The translations under genes and the position numbers were made by a program. The notes beneath the pieces were generated by a model. The model saw only the letters and a list, made by a program, of their open reading frames with translations. It was not told where the DNA came from and did no database searches. This document shows positions 17,202-63,968 of a DNA stretch of 64,000 nucleotides, piece by piece; position 1 is the stretch's first letter, and each line of letters begins with the position of its first letter. Source of the stretch: Nitrospirota bacterium (GTDB lineage Bacteria; Nitrospirota; Nitrospiria; Nitrospirales; UBA8639); assembly GCA_003695915.1 (NCBI GenBank), contig RFGF01000111.1, forward strand, positions 1 through 64,000, given 5' to 3'.

Positions 17202-17864
17202 CTAGGGCTGCGAATTGTGGTGATGGTTACGCGCCTGTCGGAGAAGGCGCTCCATGAGCCCGGGATCGAGCAAGGCGTCCTGCCAGCTTTTCGCCTTCAG
17301 TAATCGTTCCTCGTCCAGATGCATTGTGTGTTGAAGATTGGTCCGGATGAGTCGGGCTCCTGTGAGCGAGGTGTGGTGAAGGGAGGCGCTCTCGAGGTTG
17401 GCCTCGGTGAGGTCCGCTTCTCGCAAGTCGGCCATAAAGAGATTGGCTTGAGCGAGATTGGCGTGTCGAAGACACGCCCAAGGCAGAGAGGCTCGGGTAA
17501 GATTGGCCCACCGAAGATCTGCACCGGTCATGTCGGCTCGAATAAGCCCGGAGCCCGTCAAATCGACACGGGGCATGATGGCATGAGACAGGATTGCTTT
17601 GATGAGATTCGCCTCCAAGATATCGGATTCGGTCAGGTTGGCGCCGGACAGATCGGCTTCTGTGAAATCGACACGGAAGAGGTAGGCGTCCGAAAGGTCG
17701 GCGCGGGTGAGATTCGCACGCGAGAGATCGGCAAGCGTCAAATCGTACCCCGAGAGATCCGCCTGGCTGAGATCGGGTATCACCATGGGATTGGTTCGTC
17801 GAAATTTGTTCCACGCCTCGACTCCTCCTTGCAGAAGCCGGGCGACATGCTCCGGATTCGCCAT
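17202..17864 (-). CDS. Pentapeptide-repeat protein
   Basis: 220 residues, of which about 35-190 are nearly continuous A(D/N)LxX repeats (ADLSG, ANLTR, ADLSD, ANLTE, ANLIK, ADMTG, ADLRW and so on). These fold as a right-handed four-sided beta helix. The N-terminal ~30 residues (EHVARLLQGGVEAWNKFRR) form a helical cap seen in many cytosolic members. No signal peptide or membrane segment is visible. It lies 63 bases downstream of hflC on the same strand and may be co-transcribed with hflKC. The function is unknown; some family members mimic DNA and protect gyrase, but nothing here points to that specifically. Confidence 0.85.
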   Translation of the reverse strand: MANPEHVARLLQGGVEAWNKFRRTNPMVIPDLSQADLSGYDLTLADLSRANLTRADLSDAYLFRVDFTEADLSGANLTESDILEANLIKAILSHAIMPRVDLTGSGLIRADMTGADLRWANLTRASLPWACLRHANLAQANLFMADLREADLTEANLESASLHHTSLTGARLIRTNLQHTMHLDEERLLKAKSWQDALLDPGLMERLLRQARNHHHNSQP

Positions 17865-17927
17865 GAACGCTGCGTCGGTCAGAAGGATCGGAATTTTTCC
17901 TGTGTCTTACCGATTGGGGCGTCGGGG

Positions 17928-18788
17928 TTATCGTTTCTTGAGGTACTGGAGAAATTCCGATTGCGGACTGAGCAACAGTAAGGTGTCATCTTTGAGCGTT
18001 GTCTTGTACGCTTCCATGGATCGGGTAAAGGCAAAAAATTGGGGATCTTGGCGGTAGGCACCGGCGTAAATGCTGAACGCTTTGGCATCTCCTTCCCCCC
18101 GAATCTGTTGGGCCGTTTTGTAGGCTTCCGCTAGGATGATCTCTTTTTCTTTGTCGGCTTCCGAGCGGATTTTTTGTGCCTCTTCCTCGCCTTCGGCTCG
18201 ATACTGCTTGGCCTGGCGTTCGCGCTCGGCTCGCATGCGGGCAAAGACAGCCTTTTCATTCTGCTCCGGCAAATCGGCCCGTTTGATGCGCACATCCAGC
18301 ACCGCGAGTCCATACGGCGAGGCCTTTTCGTTCGCACGCTCGGTGACGACTTTCATGATGAGCGATCGATTCGCAGAGACAATCTCCGTGAGTTCGTGCC
18401 GTCCCAGCTCAACCCGCAGTTCGGAGTAAATGATATCGTCCAATCGCTGCAAGGCGTTTCGTTCCGTTTGAAAGGCCTGATAAACGCGAAGCGGATCGAC
18501 GATTTGCCATTTGGCGAAGTTGTCGATGACGATCGTTTTTTTATCCAGGGTGATGACATCCCGGGCCGGGGCATCGTAATCGAGCAATCGTTTGTCGAAG
18601 TATTTGACGTCTTGGATGAACGGAATCTTGAACTTCAGTCCTGGTTCCGTGATGGTGCGCACGGGTTTCCCCAGTTGGACGATGATCGCCGATTCCGTCA
18701 GATCGACGACGAAAAAGGGCGAAACGCCGAGCATGAACAATAATCCAAGGACGACGATAATGCCGATCAACAAGTTTTGCTTCGTCAT
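17928..18788 (-). CDS. hflC: HflC, membrane protease modulator
   Basis: 286 residues: an N-terminal membrane anchor (residues ~5-26, LLIGIIVVLGLLFMLGV) followed by a band-7/SPFH domain (FFVVDLTESAIIVQLGKPVRTITEPGLKFKIPF) and a coiled, Glu/Arg-rich segment (RAEGEEEAQKIRSEADKEKE). HflC with HflK forms a large periplasm-facing ring around FtsH and modulates membrane protein degradation. The start codon overlaps the hflK stop by four bases (ATGA), showing coupling. The length is close to the E. coli protein. Confidence 0.92.
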   Translation of the reverse strand: MTKQNLLIGIIVVLGLLFMLGVSPFFVVDLTESAIIVQLGKPVRTITEPGLKFKIPFIQDVKYFDKRLLDYDAPARDVITLDKKTIVIDNFAKWQIVDPLRVYQAFQTERNALQRLDDIIYSELRVELGRHELTEIVSANRSLIMKVVTERANEKASPYGLAVLDVRIKRADLPEQNEKAVFARMRAERERQAKQYRAEGEEEAQKIRSEADKEKEIILAEAYKTAQQIRGEGDAKAFSIYAGAYRQDPQFFAFTRSMEAYKTTLKDDTLLLLSPQSEFLQYLKKR

Positions 18789-60828: not shown

Positions 60829-61314
60829 ATGAGCGTGAATACATGGGGAAGAGTGGGTTTCTTCATGGTAGCTTCGACACTGTTCTTGAGCGTGACGGCT
60901 TGTGGGGGAGGAGAAGGACCGCCACAACCGCCGCCGCCAGCTCCCCCCGAGTATGCCGATAAGCACATGCCGCCGGACTACTGGAACAATCCAGACATCA
61001 TCGAAGAAGGGCGTCAGATTTATACTGGAGCGCAGAATATCGATGTGAATTGTGCCAGCTGTCATGGAAAAGACGGAAAACCAGTGAAGGCGGGAGCTCG
61101 GGATTTTCGCAGAACCGATTGGATGCAATTGTTTTCGGATTCGCAATGGTTTTGGCGTGTCTCGGAAGGGGTCAAAGGAACCAAGATGAAGGCCTGGAAA
61201 TCGAAGCTCTCCGAAGATGAGCGGTGGAAGGTCATCGCTTACGAAGCCACGTTTGGGTTAAAAGGCAAAAAATACGATCCGGAGAAAAAGGCATGGGTGC
61301 CGGATACGGATTAA
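60829..61314 (+). CDS. Lipoprotein c-type cytochrome
   Basis: 161 residues from ATG 60829 (GGGGGAG upstream; the frame is open to 60802). The signal ends in a lipobox SVTAC, giving a lipidated Cys25, then a Pro-rich linker (PPQPPPPAPP). One heme c site CASCH (75-79) and a plausible axial Met120 in KGTKMKAW. It is expected to be tethered to the periplasmic side of a membrane. It heads the operon with the bd-like oxidase and a second cytochrome and may pass electrons to them. Confidence 0.92.
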   Translation: MSVNTWGRVGFFMVASTLFLSVTACGGGEGPPQPPPPAPPEYADKHMPPDYWNNPDIIEEGRQIYTGAQNIDVNCASCHGKDGKPVKAGARDFRRTDWMQLFSDSQWFWRVSEGVKGTKMKAWKSKLSEDERWKVIAYEATFGLKGKKYDPEKKAWVPDTD

Positions 61315-61416
61315 AACGGATGCTCTCGACGTAGCTCGTTGGGCATCGGTGTGCATGACAGGAACCATTCGTAGCGAGTCGATTCGGCAAAGCAGGAAAG
61401 GAGGGTCGCTTTCTCG

Positions 61417-63132
61417 ATGAGCATAACATGGACCCGGAGTCTTTTGATGGTACTGGGGCTACTGGTAACGGGAGCGTCGGTGGCGTTCGCGCAAGCTCCC
61501 GATCCTCCGCCTGCCGAATTCCCGTACACAGGAAATCGAACCGGGGTGTGGATCGTGGCTCAGCTCCATATTTTGTTTGCCGCGTTCATTCTCGGAGCAC
61601 CCATCTTTGCGGTGGTTTCGGAGTGGCTAGGGTACAAGAACAACGATCCGAAATACGATCGTCTTGCCAAGGAAGTCACCAAAGTCACCGTGATTCTGTA
61701 TAGCATGACCGCTCTGACGGGGGGATTGTTTATTTTTGTCCTTCTGGCGACCTATCCGGACTTTACCACCTGGTTGATTCGGCATTTCTTTTTGATCTTC
61801 GCCCTTGTGTATCCGCTCCTCTTCATCGCCGAAACGGTGGTCTTGTACACCTACTTTTATTCTTGGGATTCGCTGAAGGGGCCTAAAAAGGCTCGCCACA
61901 TTGCCTTAGGGGTCTTGCTCAACGTCATCGGAACCGTCACGCTCTTTGCCATTGACGGACCCACGGCGTTTATGAACACTCCGGCAAAAGCCGCTGAAGG
62001 CGTATCGTTGTTCGAATTTGTTCAGTCGGCCGGTTTATGGGATAAGATGGCCAATTATAGCTGGATGCCCTTGAACCTCCATCGATTGGTGGGCAACGTG
62101 ACCTTCGGCGGGTTTATAGCAGGGCTGATCGCTGCGTATATGTATATGGGATCGAAAACCGATGAAGAGCGATCTTATTATGATTGGATGGGGTTTGTCG
62201 GAAACCTGATCGGTGTCGGTGCGTTACTGTTATTGCCCTTCATGGGCTATTTGTTGGCCTATGAGCTCTGCGATTACGATGCCTCCATTTGTCCATATAT
62301 GATGGCGGATCAACTGTCCATGTTCTTTGAAATGCAAGGCGCCATGGTCGGGTTAATTTTCTTGGCCAGCAATTATTATATCTGGCTCAGCATGAAGCGA
62401 ATCGAAGGCGTGGAGCGAGTTCGCATCTCAGGGCTTGTCATGGTGGCCGTGATTATCATGCCGGCAGTCATGGGCTTGGCGTGGAAAATGTTTCCGCCTC
62501 CGGAGTGGCAATCGTTGATCTTTCTCGTTTTGCTAGTAGCCTTGCCGCCCATCCTGAGTAGGGTTCCAGGTCTCGGGTTTACGGTGTCGTCTTTTACGAT
62601 GATCAAGGTTGGATTCTTGATGATCGTGGTGGCTGATGCTATTTGGATGACGCCTCATGGATTCGTTGCAACCCAATCATTGGCCACTGAGGAATTGGAA
62701 TTACCGTCATGGGCGAGCGAGTTGGCGTTGATGCCGGCCAAAAATGCCGCGGCCTTTACGTTGGTCTACTTAACGGTTGTCAATTATATCTTGTATAACC
62801 GAGCCATTCGGCAAGGCACGATCGTTTGGGGAAAGATCGACTTTGCTTCCCAATTTGTTCTGGTCTTTCTGGCGTACAGCGCGATTTGGACGATGGGCTT
62901 GATGGGGGCCGTTCGTTCGCTGACGAGGAAATATTATCACGTGTATAACTTGCTCCCAGATTTTACACCGGAGTCTTTCACGCCGACTTTGGCTTATTCG
63001 GCGTGGTGGATTACCGCGATCACGTTGGCATTTTATGTCGTCGTCAGTTTTGCCATCTTGGTGACGCTAAGACCCGGTGAGCAAAAAGTGCCAGTGCCTC
63101 ATGCCGCGGCTGTGCCGGCCGGAGCCAAGTAG
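61417..63132 (+). CDS. Cytochrome bd-like oxidase subunit of the Nitrospira type
   Basis: 571 residues with an N-terminal signal peptide (to ~26, ASVAFAQA) and about 13-14 membrane helices. Relation to CydA is distant: a conserved His in WIVAQLHILFAAF and another in PLNLHRLVGNVTFGG fit heme ligands, but the normal quinol-binding Q-loop is not evident. Proteins of this type, next to cytochrome c genes, have been proposed as terminal oxidases in Nitrospira. The lack of a CydB gene and the presence of two c-type cytochromes suggest a cytochrome c donor. The exact heme set is not proven by sequence. Confidence 0.75.
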   Translation: MSITWTRSLLMVLGLLVTGASVAFAQAPDPPPAEFPYTGNRTGVWIVAQLHILFAAFILGAPIFAVVSEWLGYKNNDPKYDRLAKEVTKVTVILYSMTALTGGLFIFVLLATYPDFTTWLIRHFFLIFALVYPLLFIAETVVLYTYFYSWDSLKGPKKARHIALGVLLNVIGTVTLFAIDGPTAFMNTPAKAAEGVSLFEFVQSAGLWDKMANYSWMPLNLHRLVGNVTFGGFIAGLIAAYMYMGSKTDEERSYYDWMGFVGNLIGVGALLLLPFMGYLLAYELCDYDASICPYMMADQLSMFFEMQGAMVGLIFLASNYYIWLSMKRIEGVERVRISGLVMVAVIIMPAVMGLAWKMFPPPEWQSLIFLVLLVALPPILSRVPGLGFTVSSFTMIKVGFLMIVVADAIWMTPHGFVATQSLATEELELPSWASELALMPAKNAAAFTLVYLTVVNYILYNRAIRQGTIVWGKIDFASQFVLVFLAYSAIWTMGLMGAVRSLTRKYYHVYNLLPDFTPESFTPTLAYSAWWITAITLAFYVVVSFAILVTLRPGEQKVPVPHAAAVPAGAK

Positions 63133-63155
63133 GTTACGCGAAGGAGAAATGCCAT

Positions 63156-63968
63156 ATGTCGGAATCGAGTTTTGCGAAGAGAGCGATCAAGAAACTGATT
63201 TATGGAATCGTTATCGGGATTATACTCGTTGTCGCCGCAAAGCTGACGCATTTCCCCTTCGTGTTCCAAGTGATGTTTTTCATCTACGCCTTGCTCGGGG
63301 CGCTGGTGTTTATCTTGCTCGATGCTCCGCCTATGAAACCGCTCCAGGGCGGGAAGGCTGTTATGGGTTTGGTCCTGTTTTATGTGATTGTCTCTGGCCT
63401 CTATATCGGAGGTGCGACAAGCCTTCCGCAATATGATCCTGAAGTAGAGAAAGGAAAAATCGAAAAAATTCTCAAACCGCGGCGTGCCAGAACGCAGCAG
63501 GGGAAAGTGGAAGAACTGCTGGCTCGCGCAAAGGCACTGGATGAAAAGGCGGAAATGATCGCCAAACAATTACAGGCCTTAGGGGCCGGAAAGATCGAGG
63601 AGGTGCAGGTTGCCTCGGCAGGGCCAGTTGGTGGAGCAGCGAGTGACGATATCATCGCCAAGGGAAAGGAACAATGGGAGCTTCAGGAATGTTACAACTG
63701 TCATAAGCTCTTTGGGCAAGGTGGGAAAAAGCGGGGCCCCCCATTGGACAATATCGGGAATCTTATGACACCGGAGCAAATTCGCGAAAAGATTTTGGAT
63801 CCCAAGAGTTGGATGGCCGAGGGCTATGAGAAGGAGTACAAGAAGGGAAAAATGCCGGATAAATACAAAGATTTGATGTTCCCGGAAGAGATCGATGCGT
63901 TGGTCGCCTTTCTGTCGACTCTCAAAAATCCGTCGGTCAAGACGCCGAAACCCATCAAGATGAAATAA
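63156..63968 (+). CDS. Membrane-anchored c-type cytochrome with three membrane helices
   Basis: 270 residues. Three hydrophobic segments (~14-29, 34-54, 68-86) are followed by a charged coiled-coil (~98-142, QGKVEELLARAKALDEKAEMIAKQLQ), then a cytochrome c domain with CYNCH (179-183) and a likely axial Met233 in GKMPDKY. It sits 23 bases after the oxidase gene and is probably the membrane electron-transfer subunit. The coiled coil may serve as a stalk that places the heme domain. Confidence 0.88.
   Translation: MSESSFAKRAIKKLIYGIVIGIILVVAAKLTHFPFVFQVMFFIYALLGALVFILLDAPPMKPLQGGKAVMGLVLFYVIVSGLYIGGATSLPQYDPEVEKGKIEKILKPRRARTQQGKVEELLARAKALDEKAEMIAKQLQALGAGKIEEVQVASAGPVGGAASDDIIAKGKEQWELQECYNCHKLFGQGGKKRGPPLDNIGNLMTPEQIREKILDPKSWMAEGYEKEYKKGKMPDKYKDLMFPEEIDALVAFLSTLKNPSVKTPKPIKMK

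What the first reader, a model, noticed from the sequence alone, without database searches (positions are those of the whole stretch)
60829..63968. bd-like oxidase flanked by two c-type cytochromes and without CydB
Normal bd oxidases take electrons from quinol and have CydA plus CydB. This one has an N-terminal signal peptide, lacks an evident Q-loop and is enclosed by a lipoprotein and a membrane cytochrome c. It looks like a cytochrome c-linked oxygen-reducing or electron-transfer complex of the type proposed for Nitrospira.
Basis: partly seen in the sequence, partly recalled or inferred. Interest (0 to 1): 0.6.

Follow-up and report, generated by a model that had tools for sequence, protein, structure and literature searches.

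The report
Cytochrome-c-linked bd-like respiratory module, Nitrospirales
A nitrite-oxidising bacterium carries a relative of an oxygen-using respiratory enzyme that has lost its quinol-binding loop and sits between two cytochromes c; it is a known, conserved but untested part of the Nitrospira respiratory chain, and the gene usually proposed to reduce oxygen is its neighbour about 4 kb downstream.

Summary
60829-61314 is a monoheme cytochrome c lipoprotein, 61417-63132 a CydA-family membrane protein ('bd1'), 63156-63968 a membrane cytochrome c; no CydB, no Q-loop. bd1 is the orthologue (76%) of 'bd-like_1' of Nitrospira moscoviensis, role unknown. [quoted passage not shown] bd1 keeps counterparts of E. 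coli H19, E107, H186 and M393. It lacks E99, E445, GRQPW, the quinol residues, a His found in 25/26 other bd-like proteins, and two helices those proteins share. A clear orthologue is in 48/49 family genomes; closed genomes G013 and G014 have NXR but no heme-copper oxidase or CydB, so some bd-like protein probably reduces O2 there. In three distant Nitrospirota genomes (two families) a shorter bd1 with its cytochromes sits in a molybdoenzyme operon with no PsrC/NrfD anchor in the stretch read. Best reading: a heme-b membrane module moving electrons between periplasmic cytochrome c/molybdoenzymes and the membrane chain; O2 reduction by bd1 itself is possible but not favoured. No biochemical test was found.

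The parts
60829..61314 (+). Monoheme cytochrome c lipoprotein (161 aa; lipobox VTAC, proline-rich linker, CASCH)
   Evidence: lipobox-like motif 77/78 and one CxxCH 78/78 orthologues
61417..63132 (+). bd1: OR-N-type CydA-like membrane protein (571 aa), orthologue of N. moscoviensis bd-like_1; signal peptide; H51, E139, H161, H222, M439, H508 conserved
   Evidence: PF01654; AlphaFold model pLDDT 72.9, ten best PDB matches all CydA, prob 1.00; alignment and conservation; tree
62425..62595 (+). About 57-residue, two-helix insert (bd1 residues ~337-393) in bd1 of Nitrospirales, absent from the shorter homologues of related lineages
   Evidence: helices 339-358 and 364-380 in the model
63156..63968 (+). 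Membrane cytochrome c (270 aa; about three hydrophobic helices, charged linker, one CYNCH)

Best explanation
The three genes encode a membrane electron-transfer module. bd1 is a quinol-site-less CydA homologue of the OR-N family. It probably holds a low-spin heme b (H222/M439, the counterpart of b558) and at least one more heme near H51, close to the periplasmic face. The lipoprotein and the membrane-anchored cytochrome c exchange electrons with it. In Nitrospirales it works beside the Rieske/cytochrome b pair, bd2 and the alternative NxrC encoded directly downstream, carrying electrons between the cytochrome c pool fed by nitrite oxidoreductase and the membrane chain; bd2 is the more likely oxygen-reducing member. 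Shown: gene content, conservation, synteny, homology, conserved and lost ligand positions, molybdoenzyme operons in related lineages. Inferred: heme content, direction of electron flow, complex formation, which paralogue reduces O2.
For: Ligand pair H186/M393 conserved as H222 and M439 in 38/38 bd-like proteins; H19 as H51 and E107 as E139 in 12/12 bd1. Quinol residues lost. Trio in fixed order with Rieske-cytb-bd2-cytc-cytc-altNxrC across nearly all loci long enough (exception L043). bd1 lacks the His found in 25/26 other OR-N proteins and the two helices they share. In G102, G097 and G060 a shorter bd1 with its cytochromes c is encoded with a Tat-type Mo-bisMGD subunit (formate dehydrogenase / thiosulfate reductase / ArrA group), an FeS subunit and a TorD-like chaperone, with no NrfD/PsrC-like gene in the stretch read. 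OR-N proteins of G157 and G218 sit beside NxrAB-like genes and have Met where H19 should be. In the class around Nitrospirales, seven of nine sampled genomes with OR-N proteins show no match as strong as bd1; two of the seven, G182 and G226, also lack CydB and heme-copper oxidase.
Against: bd1 keeps the same helix 1-4 core residues as bd2, so the sequence does not exclude O2 reduction. G102, G097 and G060 also encode heme-copper oxidases and two of them CydB, so they may be aerobes whose molybdoenzyme feeds bd1 as an oxidase. The molybdoenzyme association rests on three genomes in two families. bd1 and bd2 are nearly always neighbours in Nitrospirales, which also fits a heterodimer.
Confidence: 0.43

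Rival explanations
1. bd1 is the CydA' partner of bd2: the two paralogues form an OR-N CydAA' cytochrome c oxidase, the terminal oxidase of Nitrospirales, with bd1 as accessory or second heme-carrying subunit.
For: PMC12342949 proposes that the NIDE0901-like OR-N2 subunit forms a CydAA' oxidase with an OR-N1-type CydA; bd1 and bd2 lie in one conserved cluster; in closed genomes G013/G014 no heme-copper oxidase or CydB was found.
Against: bd2-type proteins occur without a strong bd1 match in G182 and G226, and bd1 occurs in molybdoenzyme operons with no bd2 beside it. In one genome (L043/G015) the two genes are more than 1 Mb apart. Whether bd1 is the published 'OR-N1' could not be mapped: the defining paper is not held.
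Confidence: 0.3
2. bd1 with its two cytochromes c is by itself a cytochrome c-dependent oxygen reductase.
For: CydA fold and H19, E107, H186, M393 counterparts retained; no quinol site; two dedicated cytochromes c; 43/49 family genomes have no heme-copper oxidase above cut-off.
Against: E99, E445 and GRQPW counterparts lost, a His common to other OR-N proteins missing, two OR-N helices missing; the published candidate is bd2 (PMC6606698, PMC12342949); neighbours in distant lineages are molybdoenzymes.
Confidence: 0.15
3. bd1 has a new quinone site and runs electrons from cytochrome c to quinone (reverse transport) as an alternative complex III.
For: Proposed for bd-like proteins in PMC3578206; adjacent to Rieske/cytochrome b genes; related operons lack a PsrC/NrfD-type quinone subunit in the stretch read.
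Against: Known quinol-binding residues and the Q-loop are absent; a bc-type pair next door could do the same job.
Confidence: 0.12

Closest known systems
bd-like_1 of Nitrospira moscoviensis (region of NITMOv2_0740, alt_nxrC_1; PMC6606698)
   Same: Orthologue: 76% identity, same neighbours in the same order (L089)
   Different: None of note; its role is described as unknown there too
bd-like_2 / NIDE0901 / OR-N2, proposed Nitrospira terminal oxidase
   Same: Same OR-N group; same gene cluster; shared H51/E139/H161/H222/M439/H508
   Different: Separate clade (100/100 support for bd1); bd1 lacks the H388/H389/H537 counterparts and two helices, and has its own two-helix insert
Canonical cytochrome bd (CydAB, E. 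coli bd-I)
   Same: Fold of CydA, helix 1-4 core residues, b558-like His/Met pair
   Different: No CydB, no Q-loop, no E99/E445/GRQPW, cytochromes c in the operon
bd-like protein of the NXR clusters of Nitrospina and anammox bacteria (PMC3578206)
   Same: Quinol-site-less CydA homologue beside mono- and diheme cytochromes c and molybdoenzyme genes, as described in that paper
   Different: Its setting resembles the bd3-type module rather than bd1; sequences not compared here

Membership tests
Canonical cytochrome bd quinol oxidase (CydAB) | CydB subunit encoded with CydA | tested here: not met
   No CydB beside bd1; the one CydB-family match of the genome pairs with another CydA on C112
Canonical cytochrome bd quinol oxidase (CydAB) | Q-loop with quinol residues K252/E257 | tested here: not met
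   They align to I291 and M296/S301
Canonical cytochrome bd quinol oxidase (CydAB) | Heme ligands H19, H186, M393 | tested here: met
   H51, H222, M439 in both bd1 profile alignments
Canonical cytochrome bd quinol oxidase (CydAB) | E99 and E445, GRQPW motif | tested here: not met
   E99 is V131; E445 is S501 (local alignment uncertain); of GRQPW only R448 is kept, as R504
OR-N family of the bd superfamily (quinol site absent, likely cytochrome c as donor) | CydA homology, missing quinol site, grouping with Nitrospira bd-like proteins | tested here: met
   family as reported in PMC10839748 and PMC13189123
OR-N subfamily OR-N1 | Placement in the published OR-N1 clade | not testable with these tools
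   Murali et al. 2021 is not held
Proposed Nitrospira terminal oxidase (NIDE0901-like, bd-like_2) | Orthology to bd-like_2 and its extra conserved His residues | tested here: not met
   Different clade; those His residues absent
Oxygen reductase | O2 reduction activity | not testable with these tools
   Needs purified complex or mutants

The most novel reading that the evidence does not exclude
bd1 with its lipoprotein and membrane cytochromes c is a general membrane electron-transfer unit, derived from an oxygen reductase, that serves periplasmic molybdoenzymes in place of a PsrC/NrfD anchor in distant Nitrospirota and was joined in Nitrospirales to a bc-type pair and a bd-like oxidase; that is, part of the bd superfamily no longer reduces O2.
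Probability: 0.3. Interest if true: 0.75.

Novelty: new member of a known kind. Interest (0 to 1): 0.45.

Why it matters
Most Nitrospirales lack a heme-copper oxidase, and how they reduce oxygen is an open question in the nitrogen cycle. In closed genomes G013 and G014, with nitrite oxidoreductase, no heme-copper oxidase and no CydB were found, so some bd-like paralogue is the likely O2 reductase there. The data also separate bd1 from bd2, so one 'bd-like oxidase' label should not be given to both. If bd1 is an electron-transfer unit for molybdoenzymes, it is an unusual reuse of an oxygen-reductase fold.

Tried and rejected
First alignments of bd1 with bd2 misplaced the C-terminal half until shorter bd1 homologues showed the two-helix insert. 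A search in the class of G060 covered only 6 genomes and gave no further clear bd1. The alternative oxidase search (PF01786) found none in 13 genomes but its control did not ring, so it proves nothing. The bd2 model was poor (pLDDT 56) and was not used. Model coordinates are not returned, so heme-site geometry was not measured. Viral fold library: no match with E <= 0.001. A weak COX1 match in this genome (C85, 20.9 bits, 19.3, cut-off 34.8) shows no HPEVY or HH motif by eye in its translation, so it was not counted as an oxidase. Solved-structure searches found only canonical CydA, no OR-N structure. Murali 2021 and Lucker 2010 are not held.

Full report
OBSERVATION. Three ORFs lie at the stated coordinates on the + strand: a cytochrome c lipoprotein 60829-61314, a CydA-like protein 61417-63132 ('bd1') and a membrane cytochrome c 63156-63968 (domains). 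Gaps are 102 and 23 nt; the next gene, a Rieske protein, starts at C15:64001, one base past the window. Contig C15 runs to 74976 and was read: Rieske, cytochrome b, a TM protein, a second CydA-like protein ('bd2', C15 67073-68944), two cytochromes c, an EB_dh-domain protein (alternative NxrC), a diheme cytochrome c, then UbiA on the other strand.

WHAT IS KNOWN. This matches the region of Nitrospira moscoviensis that holds complex III_1, bd-like_1, bd-like_2 and alt_nxrC_1 (PMC6606698). There, bd-like_2 was proposed as terminal oxidase from putative heme b and copper sites, bd-like_1 has a 'yet unknown role', and the region is strongly transcribed. In that paper two cytochrome c genes lie between the proposed oxidase and alt_NxrC_1; here they lie between bd2 and the alternative NxrC, so bd2 is bd-like_2 and bd1 is bd-like_1. 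PMC12342949 calls the NIDE0901-like subunit OR-N2 and proposes a CydAA' oxidase with an OR-N1 CydA. The OR-N family is described as likely using cytochrome c instead of quinol, without experimental confirmation (PMC10839748).

DISTRIBUTION. In the family of 49 genomes held, every genome has a bd-like match, but the clear bd1 orthologue is in 48; G031 (73% complete) has only a paralogue-level match (E = 2.2e-49). G018's bd1 carries in-frame stops, and G030 and G033 are partial. N. moscoviensis (L089) and N. defluvii (L099) have it at 76% and 75%. The order lipoprotein-bd1-cytc-Rieske-cytb-bd2-cytc-cytc-altNxrC holds in nearly all loci long enough to show it; in L043 (genome G015, 78% complete, one contig) bd2 lies over 1 Mb away, and L080 and L117 are incomplete or divergent. 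HCO (PF00115) is over cut-off in 6/49, CydB in 21/49. Closed genomes G013 (100% complete) and G014 (99%) have neither, yet have NxrA at 93% identity to this genome's. This genome has CydAB on C112 and an NxrA with NxrB on C12.

SEQUENCE. Profile alignment to canonical CydA (E. coli, this genome's own and 12 from related genomes) puts E. coli H19 on H51, E107 on E139, H126 on H161, H186 on H222, M393 on M439, E99 on V131 and E445 on S501; the last is uncertain. M439, H222, H161 and H508 are invariant in 38 OR-N proteins, H51 in all 12 bd1. H389 of bd2 is His in 25/26 other OR-N proteins and aligns to Leu in 12/12 bd1. Other OR-N proteins have two helices before the last pair that bd1 lacks, while Nitrospirales bd1 has a two-helix insert at ~337-393 that G200, G206, G102 and G060 lack. 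A tree gives bd1 100/100 support on a long stem. The model (pLDDT 72.9) finds CydA structures as its ten best PDB matches, TM-scores 0.37-0.58.

MOLYBDOENZYME LINK. In L128 (G102), L161 (G097, same genus) and L129 (G060, another family) a shorter bd1 lies with a Tat-type Mo-bisMGD subunit, an FeS subunit and a TorD-like protein. L128 and L161 also have the lipoprotein cytochrome; in L129 the membrane cytochrome carries two CxxCH and a c554-like cytochrome lies in front of bd1. Best PDB and NCBIfam hits of the Mo subunits are formate dehydrogenase, thiosulfate reductase and ArrA; none passes a curated cut-off, so the substrate is unknown. None of the three stretches read holds an NrfD/PsrC-like gene; the contigs are short, so one elsewhere is not excluded. 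In G157 and G218, OR-N proteins of the bd2 type adjoin NxrA/NxrB-like genes and have Met in place of H19.

bd2 WITHOUT bd1. Among the nine sampled non-Nitrospirales genomes of the class, all with OR-N matches, seven show no match at the strength expected for bd1 (G165, G176, G182, G202, G217, G224, G226). HCO and CydB were searched only in G182 and G226 of those seven, and neither has them; neither has an NxrA match at E <= 1e-50. Whether they respire O2 is unknown.

CONCLUSION. The genes are real and conserved. Membership in OR-N is supported; membership in canonical CydAB is refuted. Function rests on inference: electron-transfer module 0.43, CydAA' partner of bd2 0.30, oxidase alone 0.15, quinone-coupled 0.12. 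The first two could both be partly true.

Noticed in passing
   Followed up: yes
L128 20-9244, L161 1-5740, L129 323-7993: Operons joining a shorter bd1 and its cytochromes c to a periplasmic molybdoenzyme with TorD-like chaperone; no NrfD/PsrC gene in the stretch read.
   Followed up: partly
L162 and L163 (G157, G218): NxrAB-like genes beside an OR-N protein in Nitrospirota outside Nitrospirales; the H19 counterpart is Met.
   Followed up: partly
G000:C104 197-3634: A second, divergent NxrA-like molybdoenzyme (36% identity) in this genome, and another large molybdopterin match near 17568-18611.
   Followed up: no
G000:C98 (L007 5710-7689 and 11425-13320, minus strand): bd-like_3 and bd-like_4; two genes between them look by eye like formylglycine-generating-enzyme relatives.
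   Followed up: partly
G000:C85 (L158 2306-3577): 424-aa membrane protein with a weak COX1 match below cut-off; no HPEVY or HH motif seen by eye.
   Followed up: partly
L006 6096-7043: 316-aa membrane protein between cytochrome b and bd2 with no Pfam match.
   Followed up: no
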